Origin: Flavobacteriaceae bacterium
GTDB lineage: Bacteria; Bacteroidota; Bacteroidia; Flavobacteriales; Flavobacteriaceae
Assembly: GCA_002697255.1 (NCBI GenBank)
Contig: NZUH01000014.1
Location: 12,501 to 46,018 of the forward strand
Reading direction: 5' to 3'
Length of the DNA: 33,518 nt
Of this stretch, positions 12,989 through 22,548 are shown one piece after another (positions within the stretch are counted from its first letter, which is position 1; each line of letters starts with the position of its first letter). Both the position numbers and the translations under genes were made by a program. The notes below the pieces were generated by a model that was not told the DNA's origin, searched no databases, and saw only the letters and a list, made by a program, of their open reading frames with translations.

Positions 12989-14455
12989 TTAATTTACAGG
13001 GTATAGCATTGCTGTCATTTCAAAAACATATGGAAGGGTGTAATAAACCACAATGGTTATTGTAATAACTGAAATAATATTCATCCAAATTCCTTTTTTA
13101 AACATATCTTCAATTTTCAAAAATCCTGAACTAAAAACTACAGCATTTGGAGGAGTAGAGATTGGGAGCATAAATGCACATGATGCTGCTAGGGTTGCAC
13201 TAACTAACAGGAAATAAGGGTGAATTTCGATTGCCAAAGCAATAGTTACCAAAACAGGCAGTAGCATTGCAGTTGTTGCCATATTTGAAGTAACTTCGGT
13301 TAATAGATTAATTGACGTAACGATAATCAATATGATTAAAAATAGCGGAATCCCATTCAAATTTTGAAGAAGGTCAGCAATCCATAAAGCAAGTCCACTT
13401 TTTCCAAATGCACTCGCGATTGCCATACCTCCACCAAAAAGGATTAGAATGCCCCATGGTAATTTAACCGTGTCGTCCCAAACAAGTAATGTTTTATAGG
13501 ATTTATTATTGCTTGTAGGTATAATAAATAATATTACAGCAAAGAAAATAGCTATTATGGTGTCATCAATTAAAGGGAAAATCTTTTCGATGCTTCCTCT
13601 TAAAATCCATCCTAGAGCTGTAAGAGTAAAAACAATTAAAACCTTTATTTCTTCATTTGAAAACTGCCCAAGTTTCTTTAATTGTCTTATTATTTCATCT
13701 CTTCCTGCAGAAAATTCTTCATTTTTAAATCTAAAAGCAATTTTAGTTAAATAAACCCAACATATCATTAATAAAAAGGATGATAAAGGAACTCCAAATT
13801 TCATCCAATCAAACATATTTAATTTAATGCCGTAACTTTCTTCAACAACTCCAGCTAAAACCATATTTGGAGGAGTGCCAATCAAGGTCGCCATACCCCC
13901 AATAGACGCACTGTAAGCAATAGCAATCATTAATGATTTTCCAAAAATTTCATTTTCATTTTCTTTAGTATTTGGATCGTCTTTTAACTGTGAAATTATT
14001 GCAAGTCCAACTGGCAAAATCATAATAGAAGTAGCAGTGTTGGATATCCACATAGATAAAAATGCTGTAGCTAACATGAAACCAAGTATTACTCTGGATT
14101 TATTAATTCCAGTCATTCTGATAATATTTAATGCTAATCTTTTATGTAAATGCCATTTTTCAATTGCAAGTGCAATCATAAAACCACCTACAAAAAGAAA
14201 TACTAGTTTGTGTCCATAAGCAGCCGTAGTTGTAGAAAGATCCATCCCTCCAGTAAGGGGGAAAAGAACTATAGGAAGTAAAGCTGTCACAGAAATAGGA
14301 ACACATTCGGTTACCCACCAAACTGCCATCCACGCTGTAGAGGCTAATATACATTTGGCTTCAAAACTTAATCCGTCTGCTTCAAAAAACACTAATATTA
14401 ATGAAAATACTAGTGGCCCAAGAATTAATCCAATTATGTTTTTAGATGGCTTCAT
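12989..14455 (-). CDS. DASS/SLC13 family sodium-coupled anion (dicarboxylate) transporter
   Basis: This inner-membrane symporter of 488 residues has about 11-12 hydrophobic segments and would import a di- or tricarboxylate, or sulfate, with Na+. Family signatures are present: SNTATS at 138-143 in the first hairpin, GTPPN at 193-197, the second-repeat counterpart SNMATT at 390-395, and ISTPPNAVVFSSG near 435-447. The second SNT motif has Met in place of Thr. Animal dicarboxylate carriers have Val there, so this is a tolerated change. It is immediately downstream of the esterase lipoprotein gene (no gap), so the two are co-transcribed. This suggests that the transporter takes up a product the esterase releases, which is inference. 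It converges with the crotonase gene. Confidence 0.93.
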   Translation of the reverse strand: MKPSKNIIGLILGPLVFSLILVFFEADGLSFEAKCILASTAWMAVWWVTECVPISVTALLPIVLFPLTGGMDLSTTTAAYGHKLVFLFVGGFMIALAIEKWHLHKRLALNIIRMTGINKSRVILGFMLATAFLSMWISNTATSIMILPVGLAIISQLKDDPNTKENENEIFGKSLMIAIAYSASIGGMATLIGTPPNMVLAGVVEESYGIKLNMFDWMKFGVPLSSFLLMICWVYLTKIAFRFKNEEFSAGRDEIIRQLKKLGQFSNEEIKVLIVFTLTALGWILRGSIEKIFPLIDDTIIAIFFAVILFIIPTSNNKSYKTLLVWDDTVKLPWGILILFGGGMAIASAFGKSGLALWIADLLQNLNGIPLFLIILIIVTSINLLTEVTSNMATTAMLLPVLVTIALAIEIHPYFLLVSATLAASCAFMLPISTPPNAVVFSSGFLKIEDMFKKGIWMNIISVITITIVVYYTLPYVFEMTAMLYPVN

Positions 14456-15373
14456 TTAATTAAACATTAGGTCACATGCATTATTTATATTCGGGTTTGA
14501 ATCATGTCCAGCACCCTGGATTATATGTATTGACCAGTTAAAGTTATAGCTGTTTGCCTCAGCAATGTTTTGGCCACTTTCAAAAAAATGAATAGCTCTA
14601 GTAACTCTATTTAATCCTTGTGCGTCAGCATATTCATTTCGTCTAAGTCCTACAGCATTAGGATTATTATCCAGTGCTCCAACTTGAATATATAAATCTT
14701 TAGAAAGTAAATTATTAAAGTTAGTATTCATTAATATACTATTGTTGAGTCCATAAGGAAAAGATATCGAAGTGTCTGGTACTGTGTACCAGCCTGCTGC
14801 GCCAGCAACAACTTTTTCAAATCTTGCATTTGGTTTGAAAAGAATAAATCTATGAACAAATTGAGCTCCTGCTGAAAACCCAAATAAATTATATTTTTCT
14901 TGAGTAAGTGATAAAGCACTAACTACAGAATCAAATAAAGGTTCAATAACTGAAAAGCTCCACTCTTCCTCATTATTTAATGTTGAAGTACTTGGATTAT
15001 CTCCATCTTCATAAACATTTCCAAGATTATAGCCGTCGCCTAATGGAAAGTTTTCGGCTGAAAATTTCGGAGCAATTACTATAAAATTATACTCGTTAGA
15101 CTTAGCTATTGCATTATCTCTAATCCCTTCAGGATCACGACTACCTCCGTGCATTGTAAATAAAATTTTAGAGTTTGAATTATAGGATTCGGGTACGTGA
15201 TAAAAAACTTCAAAGTCAATATTGTTTTTCGTAAATGTAAACACCCCAGAGCCAACATTGATTTCAACCGGAATAATTGGCTCAGGACTAGGTGTGAAAG
15301 TTGAACCTGCAGGGTCACATGAAACAATTATAAACAAAAAAAATATAGATAGTTTTTTAAAAATTATTTTCAT
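14456..15373 (-). CDS. Surface/periplasmic alpha/beta-hydrolase lipoprotein, PHB depolymerase/feruloyl esterase-like
   Basis: This is a 305-residue secreted serine esterase candidate. The N-terminus is a lipoprotein signal, with KK near the start, a hydrophobic stretch, and FIIVSC giving lipidated Cys19. It is followed by a Pro-rich tether. The alpha/beta-hydrolase features are an oxyanion HGG (75-77), the nucleophile elbow GFSAG with Ser167, a plausible acid Asp235 (GALDNNP) and His290 in GAGHD. The layout resembles LpqC-type polyhydroxybutyrate depolymerase or feruloyl esterases. The true ester substrate is unknown. It is the first gene of a two-gene operon with the DASS transporter and is divergent from the lamin-tail lipoprotein, 104 bases away. 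Acidic Asp20 follows the lipid Cys. Confidence 0.8.
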   Translation of the reverse strand: MKIIFKKLSIFFLFIIVSCDPAGSTFTPSPEPIIPVEINVGSGVFTFTKNNIDFEVFYHVPESYNSNSKILFTMHGGSRDPEGIRDNAIAKSNEYNFIVIAPKFSAENFPLGDGYNLGNVYEDGDNPSTSTLNNEEEWSFSVIEPLFDSVVSALSLTQEKYNLFGFSAGAQFVHRFILFKPNARFEKVVAGAAGWYTVPDTSISFPYGLNNSILMNTNFNNLLSKDLYIQVGALDNNPNAVGLRRNEYADAQGLNRVTRAIHFFESGQNIAEANSYNFNWSIHIIQGAGHDSNPNINNACDLMFN

Positions 15374-15452
15374 AAAAGTTCTTTATATTATTGTTATAAA
15401 TAAATGAAATTTATACGAATAAAAAAATTCCGTTTCAAATATTTTGTCTATG

Positions 15453-15478
15453 TTAGTGTTTATCAAATATAACACTAA
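15453..15478. promoter_or_regulatory. Perfect 8-bp inverted repeat at the start of the lipoprotein/porin operon
   Basis: TTAGTGTT (15453-15460) and AACACTAA (15471-15478) form a perfect 8-bp inverted repeat with a 10-base spacer. The last base of the right arm is the A of the lipoprotein's ATG. On the minus strand, TATATTTG at 15464-15471, an exact TAnnTTTG -7 match, falls across the spacer and the first base of the right arm. Both facts fit an operator for a dimeric regulator covering the divergent control region. A hairpin masking the start codon is the alternative. No -33 element is at the expected distance, so the minus-strand promoter is only suggestive. Confidence 0.5.
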
Positions 15479-16497
15479 TGTATATGAAAATTAGAACACT
15501 TTCTCTATTGTTGATTTTGTCTGTAATTATGTCTTGTGATACAGATGATATTTTACCAGCCTTAACGCTGACAACAAGTTCAAATGAGATCAGTGAAAAT
15601 CAAGAACAAATTATAATAACTGCATCGTTAAACTCTGATATAAATGAAGACATACTTCTTCCTTTATCATTTGCAGGTACGGCAACATTTGATCAGGATT
15701 ATGTAACCACTGAGTCTGCTTTAATCATTTCATCAGTAAATAGTTCGGGCTCAATTTCGATTAGTTCAATGCAAGACAATGACATTGAAGAAATAGAAAC
15801 AATTATAATCTCAGTTGAATCGCAAAATGATGTTGTTTTGACAAATTCATCAATTACAATATCCATTTTAGATGATGATTCCGACTCAGATGGAGACGGT
15901 ATTAATGATAGTGATGATGATTGTCCAAATGAAGCTGGACTTCCAGAATATAATGGATGCTCTCAACCCTTATTAATTATCAATGAGGTTCTTTATGATC
16001 CACCAGCTGGAGATGATGCGGGAGATGCAAACGGTGACGGTACAAGAGAAGCTCAGGAAGATGAATTTATTGAGTTTGTCAACATAGGTGGAACACTTGA
16101 TTTATCTGGCTACTCAGTTCACGATGATGCTCAAGAAAGGCATGTTTTTCCTGAAGGAACAGTTATCCCCTCTGGAGGAGTATTGGTTTTATTTGGAGGA
16201 GGAAATCCAACAGGAGCTTTTGGTAATGCAACTGTACAAACGGCAACTACTGGATTATTGAATATGAACAATGCAGGCGATTTTGTAACATTACAAAACA
16301 ATAACGGAGAAGTTGTACTTACATTTGATATTGAACCTTTATCAAATAACCCAGATGAATCTTATTCTAGATATCCTGACCTAAATACAGAGCCTGATTC
16401 AGACGGTAATTTATTTTTTCAACATGCTTCACTTTCTGAATCATCAGGGACTTTGTTTTCACCTGGGACTAGGATTAATGGAACTAACTTTAATTAA
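15478..16497 (+). CDS. Lipoprotein with Calx-beta-like, thrombospondin type-3-like and lamin-tail (LTD) regions
   Basis: This is a 339-residue lipoprotein, probably at the cell surface. The signal ends in SVIMSC (lipid Cys20) and is followed by acidic DTDD, resembling Bacteroidota surface-export signals. Residues about 30-132 look like one Calx-beta domain, with an FAGTATFDQDYV-type strand pattern. Residues 132-161 form a TSP3-like calcium loop rich in Asp, with two Cys (149 and 161). Residues 165-300 form an LTD domain beginning IINEVLYDPP and carrying a second Asp/Glu calcium-type loop (DANGDGTREAQEDE, 183-196). Start choice: ATG 15478 gives MYMK, and the in-frame ATG at 15484 gives a more usual MK start. 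Two bases separate it from the porin gene. The function is unknown; binding of a ligand or of the porin is a guess. Confidence 0.8.
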   Translation: MYMKIRTLSLLLILSVIMSCDTDDILPALTLTTSSNEISENQEQIIITASLNSDINEDILLPLSFAGTATFDQDYVTTESALIISSVNSSGSISISSMQDNDIEEIETIIISVESQNDVVLTNSSITISILDDDSDSDGDGINDSDDDCPNEAGLPEYNGCSQPLLIINEVLYDPPAGDDAGDANGDGTREAQEDEFIEFVNIGGTLDLSGYSVHDDAQERHVFPEGTVIPSGGVLVLFGGGNPTGAFGNATVQTATTGLLNMNNAGDFVTLQNNNGEVVLTFDIEPLSNNPDESYSRYPDLNTEPDSDGNLFFQHASLSESSGTLFSPGTRINGTNFN

Positions 16498-16499
16498 TT

Positions 16500-17822
16500 A
16501 TGAATAAGAAAATAATATTTTGCTTATTTAGTTTTTTTTCAATTATTGGTTTTTCTCAATCCGTGCAAATGGAGTCATATAATTTTGGCGAGGGGCTTAG
16601 GTTTAATGGAGAATTTGGAAATTCCATTAGATTAACTGGTTATGCTCAGCCAATGATTGACTTAAAAAACTATACCGATGTTGAAGAAAACTCTTCTTCA
16701 GAAAGGTATAGGTTAAGGAGATTAAGACTAAGATTAGATGGAACCTCCAGTAATGAGAGATTTGGATACAGATTTCAGGTTGATTTAAGCGGAACATCTG
16801 AAGTCGGAGATAATACGGGAGATTATTTACTTGACGCTTATGTTTCCTATGCTGTCACAAACAGGATAAGTGTATTATTTGGCCAAAGAGCTACATATAC
16901 TGACAATAGAGAACTTTTTATGAATTCTAATTCACTACAGCTTGTAGAAAGAAGTAGGCTAACTTCTGCTTTTTCATCTATTAGAGAATTTGGGCTGTTT
17001 GTTAACGGAAGATTTAGAATGAATAATGGCTCTTATTTGAGACCATACTTTGCTCTAACAAATGGTGATGGAAGAAATGCTTTTGATAAGGACCATGGTG
17101 GATTAAAAGTAGGTGGAAGGATTGACTATTTGCCGTTTGGACTTTTTACCAACCTAGGGCAATTTAGGCAAATTGATGTGATGCGTGAACAAACACCAAA
17201 ATTTGTTGTTGGAGCACATTTTAGTCACAATTCAGGAATGAGTAGCAGAAGAGGTAGAGGTAGTGGAGATATAATATATTTGAATGCAAATGATGAAGAA
17301 TCTCTTCCAGACTATGTTAAATATGGACTTGATTTTATGCTAAAGTACAGGGGATTTTCTGCAATTGGTGAATATATCAAATCTGAAGCTACAGTACCTG
17401 ATGACATTACTCAAAGGGTAAGAAATAATGGTACATTTTCCTCTGATTTTAACGGAATTGAAGATGGAAACGGGGATATCAATGATATGCTTAATTATGT
17501 GCGTGGAAGGATGATGTTAGGGGAAGCATATAACATTCAAATGGGATATTTGTTTAAATCAGGTTTTTCTGTTGATACCAGATACACTCATTTAATTGCT
17601 GATGAACATTCATTTTTGAATAACTCAACTTTTTACAATAGGCCTAATTATTATACTTTGGGGGTAGGTAAGTTAATGTCAAGAAATTACGGTTTTAAAA
17701 TTCAGGCTTCTGTCACCTATGTTGATGGAAGTCTAGGTGTAAATCATGATTATGATATTGGCACTGATGCTATATTCACTGATGAAATATTATTTAGATT
17801 AATAACAACAATTTCATTTTGA
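16500..17822 (+). CDS. Porin, OprO/OprP-like family, with arginine-rich strand
   Basis: This is an outer-membrane beta-barrel channel of 440 residues. The signal peptide ends near GFSQ (17-20). Alternating polar/hydrophobic strands run through the protein, and the last residue is Phe (TTISF), as expected for barrel insertion. Residues 69-78 read RYRLRRLRLR, with Arg at 69, 71, 73, 74, 76 and 78. In a beta strand many of these would face the pore, recalling the arginine ladder of OprP phosphate channels and suggesting anion preference (inference). A basic loop, SSRRGRGSG, lies near residues 250-258. It is clearly paralogous to the porin at 19360: shared segments include GDGRN, GG.K.G.R, PDY and LKY.GFS. 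Its TGA stop overlaps the TTG start of the peptidase. Confidence 0.85.
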   Translation: MNKKIIFCLFSFFSIIGFSQSVQMESYNFGEGLRFNGEFGNSIRLTGYAQPMIDLKNYTDVEENSSSERYRLRRLRLRLDGTSSNERFGYRFQVDLSGTSEVGDNTGDYLLDAYVSYAVTNRISVLFGQRATYTDNRELFMNSNSLQLVERSRLTSAFSSIREFGLFVNGRFRMNNGSYLRPYFALTNGDGRNAFDKDHGGLKVGGRIDYLPFGLFTNLGQFRQIDVMREQTPKFVVGAHFSHNSGMSSRRGRGSGDIIYLNANDEESLPDYVKYGLDFMLKYRGFSAIGEYIKSEATVPDDITQRVRNNGTFSSDFNGIEDGNGDINDMLNYVRGRMMLGEAYNIQMGYLFKSGFSVDTRYTHLIADEHSFLNNSTFYNRPNYYTLGVGKLMSRNYGFKIQASVTYVDGSLGVNHDYDIGTDAIFTDEILFRLITTISF

Positions 17823-19354
17823 TAAGAGTTTTTATTCTAATATTATTTTTGTTTAATTCTGATTATATAATATCTCAGTTAAATCCTCAATCTAAAAAGG
17901 TTACAAATACTTTCTTTCAAGATTTTGAGGAAATTCAAGCTGTAACACCTGGTTTAAAAAAGAAAAAAGGTTTTACAAACTATGAGGAGCTTGTTAGTTT
18001 CTTAGATAAATTTTCAATTAAATATCCTGAAAAAGTCAAAATAAAATATATTGGTGAATCACAAAAAGGAAAAAAAATACCAATTCTTTATTTAAGTGAT
18101 AATAATGAATCAAAAAATAAACTAAAAGTTTGGCTGCAGGGAGGTTTACATGGTGATGAGCCTGCAAGTACTGAGTCTCTTCTATACACATTACATATGT
18201 TGTTAGAAGACAAAAATTATCTTCATTTGACTCAAAAATTAGACATTGCTATTTTGCCAATGGCAAATATCGATGGCTTTATAAAAAACAAGAGATATGC
18301 TGCAAATAGTCTAGATCTTAATCGAGATCATACTAAGCTAATGGCTATTGAAACTCAAGTTATTAAAAGAGAATTTGCAGAGTTTGATCCGCATGTAGCT
18401 TTAGATTTTCATGAGTACAGACCTTACAGAAAGGATTTTGCTCAGTTAAGTTCTTTTGGAATTGCTTCCATTTATGATTTGATGTTTCTTCACTCTGGTA
18501 ATTTGAATGTTCCAAAGAATATTAGGACTATAGTTGACACGTTATTTGTTAAAAACGCTAAAGTTGAATTAGATTCTTTGGGTTTAACCAATAGACATTA
18601 TATGAAATCTGACAAGATTTTAGGAGAAATTCAATTCAGTACAGGATCAAATACTGCAAGATCTAGTTCTAACTTTTTTGCACTTAGCGGTTCTTATGCA
18701 ACTCTATTTGAAATTAGGGGTGTGGGTATCGGAAAAACTTCATTCAAAAGAAGAGTAGGTTCAGGATTTTCTGTAGCAACTTCTTTTTTACAAACAGCTT
18801 ATGATAATATAGATTTTCTTTTAGATGAATTAGATTTGGCAAATAAACACTCTGAAAATATTGTAGTAACATCTGAAAGGAGTGTTTACAGTGATACAAT
18901 TTTAGCAATTGACCTGGAAAGTAATCAAATAATTAAACTTCCAATAATAATGCGTGATGCAAAAAAATCTAAACCTATTTTAGAAAGGTCAAGGCCTGTT
19001 TTTTATGCGTTAAAATCGAATAATCTTAATGTTATCAAAAAAATAGATAATCTAGGTATTGAAAAAATTGAAATAAAATCAGACACAATAATTCAGGTTG
19101 AAAAATATTTGGTTGTAAATTTTAAAAATGATTTTAAACCTTATGAAAAGATGAAGATGCAAGAAGTTCAGACAGAGATTATAAATGATAAAATTAAATT
19201 TACAGAAGGAGATGTTTTAATCCCTTTAGAACAAAAAAAATCTAATTTAATCGTTGAGTTAATGGAGCCAGAAGCACCCAACAGTTTTATTTCGTTTGGC
19301 ATCATGAAAACCAATTTAGAAGATATATTAACAGTTTACAGAATAAATAATTAA
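17819..19354 (+). CDS. Secreted M14-family zinc carboxypeptidase
   Basis: This 511-residue metallopeptidase would trim peptides (or peptide-like amides), probably in the periplasm or at the surface. A signal peptide covers about residues 1-19. The zinc site is complete: HGDE (111-114, His111 and Glu114) and His198 in DFHEYRP. The substrate-binding Arg is in LDLNRD (Arg169). The catalytic Glu is probably Glu298 in TLFEIRGVG. After the catalytic domain, about 180 residues form an unassigned C-terminal region. The start is TTG at 17819, overlapping the porin stop by four bases. No other start would retain the signal peptide. Its place between two paralogous porins, with translational coupling, suggests it processes material that enters or leaves through them. 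Confidence 0.88.
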   Translation: MIRVFILILFLFNSDYIISQLNPQSKKVTNTFFQDFEEIQAVTPGLKKKKGFTNYEELVSFLDKFSIKYPEKVKIKYIGESQKGKKIPILYLSDNNESKNKLKVWLQGGLHGDEPASTESLLYTLHMLLEDKNYLHLTQKLDIAILPMANIDGFIKNKRYAANSLDLNRDHTKLMAIETQVIKREFAEFDPHVALDFHEYRPYRKDFAQLSSFGIASIYDLMFLHSGNLNVPKNIRTIVDTLFVKNAKVELDSLGLTNRHYMKSDKILGEIQFSTGSNTARSSSNFFALSGSYATLFEIRGVGIGKTSFKRRVGSGFSVATSFLQTAYDNIDFLLDELDLANKHSENIVVTSERSVYSDTILAIDLESNQIIKLPIIMRDAKKSKPILERSRPVFYALKSNNLNVIKKIDNLGIEKIEIKSDTIIQVEKYLVVNFKNDFKPYEKMKMQEVQTEIINDKIKFTEGDVLIPLEQKKSNLIVELMEPEAPNSFISFGIMKTNLEDILTVYRINN

Positions 19355-19359
19355 AAATT

Positions 19360-20607
19360 ATGAAAAACAATATAATTACTTTCATACTGATATTTATCAG
19401 TATAAATAGTTTTTCTCAATCGGATGAGAAAAATAATGCAGAATATAATTTAGGCAACGGGATAAACTTTTCCTTCAACGAGGGTAAATACGAATTCAAT
19501 ATTTTTGGTTTTATTAGACCTTCATATATATATTCAGACGAAAAAACTTTTACTAATGAAGGGCAATTTTCTGATGTCTATAGACAATTTAAAAGTCAAA
19601 ATTCAAATTTGTATTTTACAGGCAAAGCAGTTGATGAAAAGTTAAGCTTTACTATTCAGATGGATTACAGCTCTAATGATCCATTAGTTGAGGCATTTAT
19701 TGGTTATCATATAAGTGAAAATATGACCTTATATATCGGTCAAATGCAAGTGTATCATAATAATCTTGAAATGACTCATAACGAAGATCAATTGAGATTT
19801 GCAAACAGAGGATTAATTAGTCAAATATTCACTGAAAACGGAGAAGAATTTGGACTCTTTTTAGAGACTCGTTTTGGAAATTCATTTGTTATTGAACCGA
19901 AATTAGCGATTACTTCTGGAGACGGTAGAAATTCATTTGGAGATGACTCTAGAGATTCAGATAAAGGTGGAGTAAAATTTGGTTCAAGAGTTAATATTTT
20001 TCCGTTAGGAGATTTTGCTTCTGGTAACAGGGAAAGTACAGTTGATTTTATTGGTGAACAGAAACTTAAGGCTCAAATTGGTTTTGCTTTTTCAAAGAAT
20101 ATCGGAGCTAGTAATTTAGTTGGTGACGGTCATGGAGATTTTATTATGTATGATAACTTGGATAATGAAAAATTTCCAGATTACTCACAGTTATTCTTTG
20201 ATTTAAATTTAAAATATAAAGGTTTTTCTTTTGTTTTTGAATATGCAGACTCCTTTGCATCAGGGTTGAATAATATATATACTGATACTAACCTTACCCT
20301 TATACAGCCTTCACAAATAAGCGAATATTTAGTTTTGGGAGATAGCCAAGGAATACAATTTGGTTATATGACAAAAAGTGGATACAGCTTGGATTTTATA
20401 TATGAACAATTTAATCCAGAATTTGATTTAAATACAAATTCAATTTTAAATAAGTCTTCTAATTTAGGAGTTGGGATTTCTAAATATTTAGTTGGAAATA
20501 ATCTCAAATTACAAACTAGTATTTTTAAAACTAATCATAAAAATAGTTTTGGACTTCAAGATGATGAATTTATGTCTGCTTCTTTTGTGGTTACGATAGC
20601 ATTTTAA
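19360..20607 (+). CDS. Porin, second paralog (OprO/OprP-like family)
   Basis: This is an outer-membrane beta-barrel of 415 residues with signal peptide ending at SFSQ (17-20) and a terminal Phe (VVTIAF). It shares collinear segments with the porin at 16500: ITSGDGRNSFG vs LTNGDGRNAF, DKGGVKFGSRV vs DHGGLKVGGRI, and LNLKYKGFSFVFEY vs FMLKYRGFSAIGEY. This indicates an old duplication. Unlike its partner, the strand around residues 75-91 has no arginine row, and residues 192-202 form an acidic loop (Asp-rich GDDSRDSDKGG). Its channel charge may therefore differ from that of its partner (inference). It starts five bases after the M14 gene. The substrate is unknown. Confidence 0.83.
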   Translation: MKNNIITFILIFISINSFSQSDEKNNAEYNLGNGINFSFNEGKYEFNIFGFIRPSYIYSDEKTFTNEGQFSDVYRQFKSQNSNLYFTGKAVDEKLSFTIQMDYSSNDPLVEAFIGYHISENMTLYIGQMQVYHNNLEMTHNEDQLRFANRGLISQIFTENGEEFGLFLETRFGNSFVIEPKLAITSGDGRNSFGDDSRDSDKGGVKFGSRVNIFPLGDFASGNRESTVDFIGEQKLKAQIGFAFSKNIGASNLVGDGHGDFIMYDNLDNEKFPDYSQLFFDLNLKYKGFSFVFEYADSFASGLNNIYTDTNLTLIQPSQISEYLVLGDSQGIQFGYMTKSGYSLDFIYEQFNPEFDLNTNSILNKSSNLGVGISKYLVGNNLKLQTSIFKTNHKNSFGLQDDEFMSASFVVTIAF

Positions 20608-20638
20608 AAAAAATTAATTAGTTTCGCAAAAAAAAATT

Positions 20639-21328
20639 ATGAAAAATATTGTAAAATCTTTGATGCTTTTGGTTTCTTTTACAGCAATCTCACAGTCTAA
20701 CCAAGAATTAACCACTCATTACACTAAATACTATAAACAAATGCAGTCACAGGCTGACATACAAGGTGTAATTAATGCACTAACTCATTTGAATGTTCTA
20801 GAACCAAATCAAGCTAGAAAAGATACTTTAGCAACACTGTACATGAATGAAGGGAGGTATGTAGAAGCTTTAAATACAATAGGCATTGATAAAAATAATA
20901 CTGATTCCGATTTGGCTCTTCAAGTAAAGGCATTTTCTTTAAAAGCGATTAATGACATTGATCAGTCTCTTATTCATTATGAAGAACTGTTTAAAAGAAA
21001 TCCAAATCCCTTTTTTGCTTATGATATGGCAGAAATGAAGATCAGAATTGGAGATCTAGATGGTGCTGAAACAAATATCACTTTTGGAATGGCAAATTCA
21101 GAGGGAGATATTGTCAGAAATTATTACGAGTCACAACAACCATATTCTGTTCCTATGAAAGCAGCTTTTATATATCTAAAAGGGTTAGTCAAAATAAATA
21201 AGGATAGAGTAAACAATATTGATTCAGCTATTGAGATTATGAATGAAGCATTAGAAATAGCACCAAATTTTAATCTCGCTAAAATTAGTATTGACGCTTT
21301 AAATTCTCAAAAAATCACTGAAGAATAA
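20639..21328 (+). CDS. Secreted tetratricopeptide-repeat protein
   Basis: This is a 229-residue protein with a short signal peptide (cleavage near AISQS, 16-20). It has two or three degenerate helix-turn-helix TPR-like units, seen in LATLYMNEGRYVEALNTIG, in a middle unit around DQSLIHYEELFKRNPNPF, and in a last unit AIEIMNEALEIAPNFNLA. TPRs bind proteins, so a periplasmic scaffold role is likely. No specific partner can be named. It follows the second porin by 31 bases, which include TAGTTTCG (20619-20626, one mismatch to TAnnTTTG) but no -33 element. It may be part of the porin operon or have its own promoter. Its 3' end overlaps the convergent lipoprotein by 14 bases. Confidence 0.75.
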   Translation: MKNIVKSLMLLVSFTAISQSNQELTTHYTKYYKQMQSQADIQGVINALTHLNVLEPNQARKDTLATLYMNEGRYVEALNTIGIDKNNTDSDLALQVKAFSLKAINDIDQSLIHYEELFKRNPNPFFAYDMAEMKIRIGDLDGAETNITFGMANSEGDIVRNYYESQQPYSVPMKAAFIYLKGLVKINKDRVNNIDSAIEIMNEALEIAPNFNLAKISIDALNSQKITEE

Positions 21329-21809
21329 TAATTTTTTGTTTTTCTATTACTTTGTCTATTTGAAAATTTAAATTTGAAAAAGATTTATTGATTTTTTTTA
21401 CATTATTCTCTTTTTCTTTTTCGCTTAATGCAGACTTAGAAATTAATGATTCGAATTTCATAAAGTTTGTTTCGATTACAGTCATTCTAGAAATAATCTC
21501 TGGCTGATTTAAAATATCTGGAACTGTATTTTTAAGACCATTAAAAAATCTTTTCATGTAATTTTTATTTTCAATAATCAGATCAAATCTTTTTATATTA
21601 AATTGATCAATTAATTCTTTTAACTCCATATAATTTGACCATTTGTTTAATACAATATCATTTGTGCTGAAATAAATTTCATCAAAATTTAATAAACTAT
21701 AATTAATAGAGTTTTCTTTTGAAACATTTTCAATCTTAGTAGGAGATTCTTTTTTACAGTTAAAAAAAAGAATTAGAATAAAAAAAAGTAAATTATAAAG
21801 TCTTTTCAA
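21315..21809 (-). CDS. Small hypothetical lipoprotein
   Basis: I do not recognise this family. It has a lipoprotein signal with the lipobox-like end ILFFNC, followed by KKES, and then about 145 mostly helical, Lys/Asn/Glu-rich residues with no repeats or catalytic motifs. I choose the TTG at 21809: it gives a compact signal (MKRLYNLL..., Cys18). The alternative ATG at 21839 adds ten residues and overlaps the upstream YwaF gene by 47 bases instead of 17. TTG starts are common in this window. The gene is probably translated with the YwaF gene as a unit. Its end overlaps the convergent TPR gene by 14 bases. It could be periplasmic or attached to the outer membrane. Confidence 0.65.
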   Translation of the reverse strand: MKRLYNLLFFILILFFNCKKESPTKIENVSKENSINYSLLNFDEIYFSTNDIVLNKWSNYMELKELIDQFNIKRFDLIIENKNYMKRFFNGLKNTVPDILNQPEIISRMTVIETNFMKFESLISKSALSEKEKENNVKKINKSFSNLNFQIDKVIEKQKIIILQ

Positions 21810-22548
21810 TTTCTTTTGGTTTACCGATGAAATAAACAAATAATATTAATATTATGATAATTAACTCCCACCAAAAAATATATGGTTTCATAGGAATAGA
21901 ATTTAAAAACTCTAAATAACTAGGGTGCTCAAGAATTACAAGTGGATTTGATACCGCGGGCGGATAATTAACATACATGAAATTTGAGCCCAAGCTATTG
22001 TTTACTTGTATGTTAATAAGCATAAGTATATTAAGTACTATATATGATTTAAACCATGAAAATTTAGAAAGCTTCATTCCAAGATTATTTCTTAAATAAA
22101 TTGGGAATGCTATAATCATTGCATGTTTAAAAAAGAATTGCAAATAAAAATAGTTATAGCCACCATAATCATCTACCAAGGGAGTCAAGATTGCTTGTAT
22201 TCCACCAATTATTCCACAATAAAATAAAAATTCAAATAAAAATTGTCTATTTTCTTTTCTTATAAACATGATAAAACAGCATATCAAACCGCTTATCGAG
22301 CATAAATGAAAGGGTAATTCTTTACTTATTTCCCATTTCCCCAGTGAGAATAAAAATATATGATTAGTGATAAAAAAACCAATCATTATATATGCTAATA
22401 TTTTAGCGTATTGTTCTTTATTTTTTTTAGAAACTTTATTTCCTATGTATAATACACTAAAAATTAAGATGCTGACACATATTATTGTCACAGTCCAATC
22501 ATTTGAAAAAAAACCAATTGTATATTTATTTATATCTGTATCACCCAT
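21793..22548 (-). CDS. YwaF/TIGR02206-family integral membrane protein
   Basis: This is a 251-residue membrane protein with about seven hydrophobic segments, belonging by eye to the YwaF family of unknown function. The hallmark LPFHLCSI lies at residues 78-85, followed by a QAILTP segment and a late HPSYL near 207-211. The C-terminal helix ends with a basic tail (GKPKEIEK). Its charged and polar residues in helices (His, Asp) suggest transport or a membrane enzyme role, but no reaction is established. The start ATG at 22548 lies 51 bases after the tRNA-Phe terminator hairpin, with a candidate promoter between. It overlaps the downstream small lipoprotein gene, implying one transcript. Confidence 0.82.
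   Translation of the reverse strand: MGDTDINKYTIGFFSNDWTVTIICVSILIFSVLYIGNKVSKKNKEQYAKILAYIMIGFFITNHIFLFSLGKWEISKELPFHLCSISGLICCFIMFIRKENRQFLFEFLFYCGIIGGIQAILTPLVDDYGGYNYFYLQFFFKHAMIIAFPIYLRNNLGMKLSKFSWFKSYIVLNILMLINIQVNNSLGSNFMYVNYPPAVSNPLVILEHPSYLEFLNSIPMKPYIFWWELIIIILILFVYFIGKPKEIEKTL

What the first reader, a model, noticed from the sequence alone, without database searches (positions are those of the whole stretch)
15478..21328. Lipoprotein / porin / M14 carboxypeptidase / porin / TPR operon as a candidate nutrient-capture unit
Five genes in one direction have gaps of 2, -4, 5 and 31 bases. A probably surface-exposed lipoprotein with two calcium-type Asp loops comes first, then a zinc carboxypeptidase translationally coupled to one porin and directly followed by a paralogous second porin. 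No TonB receptor or SusD-like protein is present, so this is not a standard PUL. The arrangement suggests that the lipoprotein binds or positions substrate, the porins pass it, and the peptidase trims it. The grouping is seen in the sequence; the function is inference and I do not know it as a named system.
Basis: partly seen in the sequence, partly recalled or inferred. Interest (0 to 1): 0.7.

Follow-up and report, generated by a model that had tools for sequence, protein, structure and literature searches.

The report
Likely aspartate-polymer uptake gene unit
A small ocean bacterium carries a compact set of genes, with relatives from marine to human-gut bacteria, that probably captures and digests oddly linked aspartate chains (beta-aspartyl peptides or polyaspartate), a food route for which I found no published gene cluster of this make.

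Summary
The five ORFs and gaps are as described. The unit is real, but its edges differ. In two genus relatives five genes are absent as a block: the divergent hydrolase at 14456-15373 plus lipoprotein, porin 1, M14 peptidase and porin 2; the TPR gene stays and lies elsewhere in other genera. In 80 loci, porin 1 directly precedes M14 in 79, porin 2 directly follows in 75. Outside the genus, 51 of 52 loci with room also carry isoaspartyl dipeptidase (IadA) and a DcuC carrier; of 149 family genomes, IadA is over cut-off in 7, all with this locus. The hydrolase's best solved relative is poly(aspartic acid) hydrolase-1 (E 1.6e-49). One gut contig fuses such a hydrolase to M14, beside SusD, DcuC and IadA. 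Modelled porin 2 folds like OprP/OprO. Best reading: a beta-aspartyl peptide or polyaspartate utilisation unit, lacking IadA and DcuC in this streamlined genus (0 of 21 each). Activities and natural substrate are untested; two of seven related genomes lack the close hydrolase.

The parts
14456..15373 (-). [quoted passage not shown] divergent from gene 1; part of the unit
   Evidence: 6ve6 E 1.6e-49 and 9o7u E 1.1e-45, both named Poly(Aspartic acid) hydrolase-1, against LpqC 3d0k E 2.9e-32. GxSxG Ser167 63 of 63. Absent together with LIPO, both porins and M14 in L241 and L242. Close copies (46-51%) in 5 of 7 other locus-bearing family genomes and 0 of 141 without the locus.
15374..15477 (.). 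Intergenic region between the two divergent arms; presumed promoters
   Evidence: Inference from the divergent arrangement. The promoter scan gave no excess over shuffles (39 against a mean of 38.2 for 14300-21500).
15478..16497 (+). Lipoprotein (LIPO): Calx-beta-like, TSP3-type Asp loop, LTD; likely surface-exposed
   Evidence: Lipobox followed by C-x-[TS]-[DEN]-D in 54 of 65 best LIPO ORFs with a start (pattern chosen after reading the sequences; that acidic residues after the Cys export lipoproteins to the surface in this phylum is recalled).
16500..17822 (+). Porin 1 (POR1), OprO/OprP-type
   Evidence: Directly upstream of M14 in 79 of 80 loci; orthologue in L067 PF07396 above cut-off.
17819..19354 (+). 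M14 (funnelin) zinc carboxypeptidase with signal-peptide-like N-terminus and an extra C-terminal domain
   Evidence: PF00246 76.4 bits. Model pLDDT 79.2, pTM 0.84; residues 40-335 match carboxypeptidases, Z 22-26. H111, E114, R159, N168, R169, H198, E298 in 78 of 78; R281 in 76 of 78.
19360..20607 (+). Porin 2 (POR2), paralogue of porin 1
   Evidence: Directly downstream of M14 in 75 of 80 loci. Model pLDDT 80.6; OprP 2o4v Z 31.4, rmsd 3.0, 336 aligned; best other family Z 24.6.
20639..21328 (+). TPR gene: NOT part of the unit, neighbour in this genus
   Evidence: Orthologues at other places in G143, G049, G069, G094; no match in G140, G015, G098; present beside the empty site in L241 and L242.
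12989..14455 (-). DASS (SLC13-like) symporter, flanking; present where the unit is absent, so an optional partner, not core
   Evidence: PF00939; SLC13/VcINDY relatives; labelled in 28 of 52 non-genus loci with room; present in L241 and L242.

Best explanation
The unit (14456-20607) harvests aspartate from beta-linked aspartate chains: isoaspartyl-rich peptides or polyaspartate. Proposed steps: (1) the PahZ1-like lipoprotein cuts beta-amide bonds outside the cell or in the periplasm; (2) the surface lipoprotein LIPO holds the substrate or a calcium-bound polyanion; (3) acidic oligomers diffuse through the paired OprO/OprP-type porins; (4) the exported M14 carboxypeptidase trims residues from the C-terminal end in the periplasm; (5) a C4-dicarboxylate-type carrier takes up products; (6) in most carriers of the locus cytosolic IadA splits beta-Asp dipeptides. 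The window's streamlined genus has no DcuC or IadA, most simply by loss, so there M14 and perhaps the neighbouring DASS symporter would have to finish the job. Shown: gene content, order, linkage, joint presence and absence, families, and folds of M14 and porin 2. Inferred: every catalytic and transport step, the substrate and the cell locations.
For: Porin 1 / M14 / porin 2 order in 79 / 75 of 80 loci; IadA and DcuC in 51 of 52 non-genus loci with at least 6 kb upstream; exact chain LIPO-DcuC-IadA-POR1-M14-POR2 in 46 of 52. IadA over cut-off in 7 of 149 family genomes, all among the 8 with the full-length M14 orthologue (hypergeometric 2.9e-11, shared ancestry ignored). Hydrolase closest to poly(Asp) hydrolase-1 (gut homologue E 3.2e-51). 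PahZ1-like, SGNH-like and M14 parts fused in one gut ORF, next to SusD, DcuC and IadA. Gut L247: DcuC-IadA-POR1-M14-POR2-hydrolase in one row. Of 47 loci with at least 9 kb upstream and 5 kb downstream, 37 have the hydrolase, 5 an SGNH hydrolase, none both. Block absence of hydrolase-LIPO-POR1-M14-POR2. Carriers near the locus are C4-dicarboxylate types: DcuC, DASS, DctA. R281 (76 of 78) lies, by spacing from the catalytic Glu, near carboxypeptidase position 253-255, which sets specificity (numbering and rule recalled); this fits acidic substrates. PahZ1 of Pedobacter KP-2 cuts beta-Asp bonds and leaves dimers (PMC4456602, first quarter and passages), which IadA could use.
Against: No activity measured. 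PahZ1 shares a wider family with LpqC, so homology does not prove the substrate. The close hydrolase is missing in G143 and G094 although they carry the locus, and more distant hydrolase relatives (best 38%) occur in genomes without it. Five of 47 roomy loci have neither hydrolase. A natural beta-linked polyaspartate is not known to me. The window's genus lacks IadA and DcuC (0 of 21 each). The DASS symporter is present where the unit is absent, so it is not dedicated. The R281 placement is by spacing, not superposition, and active-site loops are poorly modelled. The fusion is seen in one unverified record. Only porin 2 was modelled. The window M14 also matches the AstE/AspA domain just over cut-off, which leaves a deacylase role open.
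Confidence: 0.6

Rival explanations
1. A general scavenger of acidic or isoaspartyl-damaged peptides from detrital protein; the PahZ1-like hydrolase is only a cousin acting on another linkage. The unit recycles age-damaged protein, not a polymer.
For: IadA enzymes accept many beta-Asp-X dipeptides (PMC10206079, passages). M14 has the general carboxypeptidase fold. LpqC-type hydrolases are also related. A PepE-sized S51 peptidase is in 12 of 12 genomes checked, with or without the locus.
Against: The hydrolase is closer to PahZ1 than to LpqC (172 and 159.5 against 115 bits; 178 and 163 against 106), and a PahZ1-like part is fused to M14 in L248.
Confidence: 0.2
2. Part of cyanophycin scavenging: the unit takes up and splits beta-Asp-Arg released by cyanophycinases, like the published cyanophycin utilisation locus or the M14-type cyanophycin dipeptide hydrolases.
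For: IadA belongs to the published cyanophycin utilisation locus and M14/AstE-AspA-type enzymes split beta-Asp-Arg (PMC10206079, passages). The window M14 matches PF24827 AstE_AspA_cat just over cut-off.
Against: I saw no cyanophycinase next to M14 in the loci I read gene by gene, though most of the 80 loci were read as labels only. G049 and G015 carry a cyanophycinase elsewhere, beside an IaaA-type gene. In L225 and L227, outside the class, IadA sits with cyanophycinase (and in L227 cyanophycin synthetase), with no M14 or porin label. The larger S51 protein was not found in G000 or in 4 of 7 other locus-bearing genomes.
Confidence: 0.12
3. An ester or polymalate route: the hydrolase and SGNH enzymes are esterases that release malate or other C4 acids, which dicarboxylate carriers import; M14 and IadA act on linked amides.
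For: The hydrolase is in the PHB-depolymerase-like superfamily; an SGNH-type hydrolase is found instead of it in 10 of 80 loci; the carriers are C4-dicarboxylate types.
Against: M14 and IadA (51 of 52 non-genus loci with room) are amide-cleaving families.
Confidence: 0.05

Closest known systems
Poly(aspartic acid) hydrolase-1 (PahZ1) of Sphingomonas KT-1 and Pedobacter KP-2
   Same: The divergent hydrolase is a clear homologue of two solved chains of that name (E 1.6e-49 and 1.1e-45) with the GxSxG serine conserved. PahZ1 of KP-2 cuts beta-amide bonds of poly(Asp) (PMC4456602, first quarter and passages).
   Different: In what I read these are purified enzymes acting on synthetic polymer; my searches listed no uptake locus (open-access library, listings only). 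Here it is linked to porins, M14, a lipoprotein and, outside the genus, IadA and DcuC.
Cyanophycin utilisation locus (Ben Hania et al. 2017, known here only as cited in PMC10206079)
   Same: IadA plus a transporter for beta-aspartyl material in a Bacteroidetes strain.
   Different: It includes cyanophycinase, which I did not see in the loci read gene by gene. Porins and M14 are not mentioned for it in the passages seen. The original paper was not looked up or read.
Cyanophycin dipeptide hydrolase, M14/AstE-AspA type (named CphZ from recall; 2023 paper as cited in PMC10206079)
   Same: Annotated as M14-family or AstE/AspA; [quoted passage not shown]
   Different: The window enzyme has a signal-peptide-like N-terminus, a carboxypeptidase A/B fold and an extra C-terminal domain. 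Sequences were not compared; the paper is not held.
SusCD polysaccharide utilisation locus (PUL)
   Same: A Bacteroidota locus with lipoprotein, outer-membrane import, hydrolases and often a regulator; gut relative L248 has SusD (PF07980).
   Different: No SusD or TonB receptor among the unit's proteins; OprO/OprP-type porins take that place.

Membership tests
Poly(aspartic acid) hydrolase-1 | Sequence homology over the catalytic domain | tested here: met
   6ve6 E 1.6e-49 over residues 21-292
Poly(aspartic acid) hydrolase-1 | Nucleophile serine in GxSxG | tested here: met
   Ser167 63 of 63 full-length sequences
Poly(aspartic acid) hydrolase-1 | Cleavage of beta-amide bonds in poly(Asp) | not testable with these tools
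   Needs an assay
M14 funnelin carboxypeptidase | Zinc ligands and catalytic residues | tested here: met
   H111, E114, H198, R159, N168, R169, E298 in 78 of 78 (carboxypeptidase A equivalents recalled)
M14 funnelin carboxypeptidase | Carboxypeptidase fold | tested here: met
   Z 22-26 over residues 40-335
OprO/OprP porins (PF07396) | Pfam family score over cut-off | tested here: inconclusive
   No hit for the two window porins; orthologue of porin 1 in L067 over cut-off; 5 of 17 porin-2 members match at E up to 0.01, best 0.00052
OprO/OprP porins (PF07396) | OprP/OprO barrel fold | tested here: met
   Porin 2 only: 2o4v Z 31.4, 4rjx 30.7, 4rjw 30.4, best other family 24.6
SusCD PUL | SusC/SusD pair | tested here: not met
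   No match among the ten proteins, which include all unit genes
Cyanophycin utilisation locus | Cyanophycinase in the locus | tested here: not met
   In the window's genome the only S51 match is a PepE-sized protein on another contig
Cyanophycin utilisation locus | IadA | tested here: not met
   0 of 21 in the window's genus; present in 51 of 52 other loci with room
M14-type cyanophycin dipeptide hydrolase (CphZ) | Homology to it and beta-Asp-Arg activity | not tested
   Sequence not at hand; paper not held

The most novel reading that the evidence does not exclude
A previously undescribed 'polyaspartate utilisation locus' of Bacteroidota, spanning ocean picoplankton to the human gut: surface poly(beta-Asp) hydrolase, Ca-binding surface lipoprotein, a dedicated pair of anion-type porins in place of SusCD, an acid-specific periplasmic M14 carboxypeptidase, and a DcuC-IadA branch that streamlined open-ocean lineages have shed. 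It would imply a natural beta-linked aspartate polymer, or a large isoaspartyl peptide pool, in sea and gut that is eaten through a route not yet described.
Probability: 0.35. Interest if true: 0.8.

Novelty: new variant of a known kind. Interest (0 to 1): 0.62.

Why it matters
It ties orphan parts (a porin pair without TonB, an M14 peptidase, an LTD lipoprotein) to one predicted nutrient, beta-linked aspartate, and offers a gene marker for that nitrogen source in sea and gut. Thermally made poly(Asp) is used as a biodegradable dispersant and scale inhibitor (PMC4456602, introduction), so the locus could mark natural degraders. The prediction can be tested in cultured carriers; named strains among the loci include Polaribacter porphyrae, Flaviramulus basaltis and Mangrovimonas aestuarii.

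Tried and rejected
Rejected: TPR as part of the unit. The DASS symporter as core. Cyanophycin as the main substrate. A phage origin: the two 'phage' records with M14 are unannotated, unverified human faecal contigs with Bacteroidota-type gene content.

Led nowhere: the promoter and terminator scan gave no clear excess. Sequence alignments to solved carboxypeptidases end before the specificity loop, so R281 could not be placed. Model coordinates were not in the Python box. One viral-contig scan for the fusion found no relative; the phage collection holds no second copy. The plasmid search gave one distant full-length M14, on a Priestia plasmid. Paper searches, listings only; no title or abstract start listed there describes a polyaspartate or beta-aspartyl uptake locus of this make; the library is open-access only. 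Two papers were opened: PMC10206079 (passages) and PMC4456602 (first quarter and passages). The C-terminal domain of M14 and porin 1 were not folded. Window genes from 23520 on were not family-scanned.

Rows dropped and limits of labels: for the 52 loci I left out 14 that I assigned to the window's genus (13 match genus genomes; L093 by similarity and arrangement) and 14 others with under 6 kb upstream. For conservation I kept 77 of 80 M14 over 480 aa, plus the window. For the lipobox count I left out 5 ORFs cut at a contig edge; 11 of 65 did not fit. Neighbour labels come from HMMs built on the window's relatives (DcuC from 5 sequences); the LIPO label also takes secreted LTD proteins, so 'LIPO present' is loose, the exact chain (46 of 52) is firmer. 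Output was cut in the middle.
Full report
OBSERVATION. Pfam gives LTD above and Calx-beta below cut-off for gene 1, Peptidase_M14 for gene 3, TPR for gene 5 and nothing for the two porins. In L067 the orthologue of porin 1 is Porin_O_P above cut-off and the orthologue of gene 1 shows a TSP3 repeat below cut-off. The two porins are paralogues at 34%. The genome is a 1.5-Mb assembly in 33 contigs, 84% complete.

CONSERVATION. Some M14 match is found in 143 of 149 family genomes, but a full-length orthologue in 8, the window's own included (40-53% identity for the other 7). In all 8 it is flanked by the two porins. The 7 other regions share a longer row: a MocR-type regulator (in 6 of 7 by size and start; family-tested in L067 only), in most of them a secreted protein (T9SS tail in the three scanned), LIPO, DcuC, IadA, porin 1, M14, porin 2. 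A pattern-based scan of the genome collection with the M14 alignment gave 200 relatives, of which the best 80 loci were kept. Porin 1 is directly upstream in 79 of 80. Porin 2 is directly downstream in 75 of 80; of the other five, three end at the contig edge, one has a broken M14 frame (L116, porin 2 follows it), and L159, labelled proteobacterium, lacks both porins. Of 66 loci outside the window's genus (assignment mine, see Tried and rejected), 52 have at least 6 kb upstream: IadA 51, DcuC 51, LIPO label 52, MocR 42, hydrolase label 38, DASS 28; the exact chain LIPO-DcuC-IadA-porin-M14-porin occurs in 46. The exception, L105, has no IadA or DcuC and the window's order up to porin 2.

LINK TO IADA. 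With the curated model TIGR01975, IadA is over cut-off in 7 of 149 family genomes, exactly the seven other genomes with the M14 orthologue, each in this locus (hypergeometric 2.9e-11, shared ancestry ignored). In 392 phylum genomes IadA is over cut-off in 8, plus one truncated. The three within the window's class lie in this locus. The other six show no M14 or porin label, but in L231 and L232 my ORF picking also missed IadA, so absence there is not reliable. I family-tested the neighbours in two: cyanophycinase in L225 and L227, cyanophycin synthetase in L227.

THE WINDOW'S LINEAGE. M14 orthologues are in 15 of 21 genus genomes, two with internal stops and one cut at a contig end. IadA orthologues are in 0 of 21 (only 25-37% partial hits) and DcuC in 0 of 21. 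The genus genomes are 56-86% complete, so single absences mean little; 0 of 21 does. That this is loss follows from its presence in 51 of 52 other loci; it is an inference. PF01112 (IaaA and glycosylasparaginase type) is in 15 of 21; the one in G000 starts with a twin-arginine-like signal and scores 106.9 against an equivalog cut-off of 567.

BOUNDARIES. Two genus members without M14, G151 and G155 (66 and 67% complete), show the DASS symporter directly beside the TPR gene on one contig, with hydrolase, LIPO, porin 1, M14 and porin 2 absent together. Whether by loss or by never having gained it, the five genes move as a block. TPR orthologues in G143, G049, G069 and G094 are at other places; G140, G015 and G098 gave no match. 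So the unit in the window is 14456-20607. The other four genus genomes without M14 were not examined for the empty site.

THE HYDROLASE. The divergent gene at 14456-15373 has no Pfam hit. Its best solved relatives are two chains named Poly(Aspartic acid) hydrolase-1 (E 1.6e-49 and 1.1e-45), ahead of LpqC (2.9e-32). Some relative is in 20 of 149 family genomes; close copies (46-51%) are in 5 of the 7 other locus-bearing genomes, not in G143 or G094, and in 0 of 141 without the locus, where the best hit is 38%. In the 80 loci, 53 have at least one full-length copy, most often upstream and divergent or two genes downstream of M14. An SGNH-type hydrolase is in 10 of 80 loci and never together with it; in 47 loci with at least 9 kb upstream and 5 kb downstream, 37 have the first, 5 the second, none both, and 5 neither (L104, L135, L151, L152, L156) (chance of no overlap 1.6e-4, relatedness ignored). 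PahZ1 of Pedobacter KP-2 cuts bonds between beta-Asp units, needs at least a trimer and leaves dimers (PMC4456602, first quarter and passages). That IadA would take those dimers is inference.

GUT RELATIVES. Two unverified 'Bacteriophage sp.' records from human faeces encode M14 relatives at 34.3 and 31.7%. L247 has DcuC, IadA, porin 1, M14, porin 2 and the hydrolase in one row; that hydrolase matches poly(Asp) hydrolase-1 at 3.2e-51. L248 has SusD (PF07980 above cut-off), DcuC, IadA and one 1010-aa ORF that joins a PahZ1-like part (29-287, E 2.3e-38), a DUF4886/SGNH-like part (below Pfam cut-off, 342-504) and M14. So the two hydrolase types, never together in the 80 loci, are together here. 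An ORF before SusD, cut by the contig end, could be SusC but has no Pfam hit. The fusion was seen once. Reading these records as Bacteroidota chromosome pieces rests on gene content.

FOLDS. The M14 model (pLDDT 79.2, pTM 0.84; stretches 13-32, 155-175, 204-217 and 442-444 under 50) matches carboxypeptidases over residues 40-335 (Z 22-26); the C-terminal part was not tested alone. Zinc and catalytic positions are invariant in 78 sequences; R281 is Arg in 76, Ile in L158 and L167. Counting back from the catalytic Glu places it near position 253-255 of carboxypeptidase A, the specificity site, where a basic residue favours acidic side chains; numbering and rule are recalled, and the alignments did not reach the site. 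The porin 2 model (pLDDT 80.6) matches OprP and OprO best (Z 31.4, 30.7, 30.4; best other 24.6).

CARRIERS. DcuC (NF037994 over cut-off in L067), a DASS symporter related to SLC13 and VcINDY and DctA (over cut-off in L161, just under in L131) belong to C4-dicarboxylate families. Their recurrence suggests a dicarboxylic product, but their substrates here are not known.

CONCLUSION. A conserved unit, present or absent as a block, with a poly(Asp)-hydrolase relative, an M14 with a near-invariant Arg near its specificity site, OprP-like porins and, in most carriers, IadA and a dicarboxylate-type carrier, is best explained as utilisation of beta-aspartyl peptides or polyaspartate. Cyanophycin is less likely: I saw no cyanophycinase in the loci read gene by gene, and where one is confirmed (G049, G015) it sits elsewhere beside an IaaA-type gene; a third candidate in G069 was fetched but not scanned. 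The published cyanophycin utilisation locus and the M14-type dipeptide hydrolase are known to me here only through passages of PMC10206079.

Noticed in passing
L248:6444-9476: Single 1010-aa ORF joining PahZ1-like, SGNH/DUF4886-like and M14 parts, next to SusD, DcuC and IadA, in a human faecal contig deposited as a phage.
   Followed up: partly
L211, L212 (G049, G015): Cyanophycinase (TIGR02069 over cut-off) beside an IaaA-type gene (309 aa; the L211 copy scores below its equivalog cut-off), away from the present locus: a separate module in the same genomes.
   Followed up: partly
L225, L227 (phylum genomes outside the class): IadA next to cyanophycinase, and in L227 also cyanophycin synthetase: another IadA context in the phylum.
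   Followed up: partly
L083 (G166) and L059 (G165): M14 with an in-frame stop in two genus members: decay of the unit or errors in draft assemblies.
   Followed up: no
L249 (Priestia filamentosa plasmid p5): A distant M14 relative (31% over 98%) beside a PLP-dependent aminotransferase-family gene (perhaps MocR-like), an MFS transporter and IS4 elements.
   Followed up: no
L065:1703-3052, L068:3986-5770 (family-scanned); L128, L131 (HMM label only): T9SS-sorted proteins with LTD domains upstream of the lipoprotein, which carries an LTD itself.
   Followed up: no
window 21793-22548: TMEM164-family integral membrane acyltransferase (TIGR02206 over cut-off) next to a tRNA-Phe gene; the gene is kept near the unit in the genus regions read.
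   Followed up: no
L159: GC-rich record labelled proteobacterium with an M14 relative (40%) but no porins; a DASS-labelled gene a few ORFs away.
   Followed up: no
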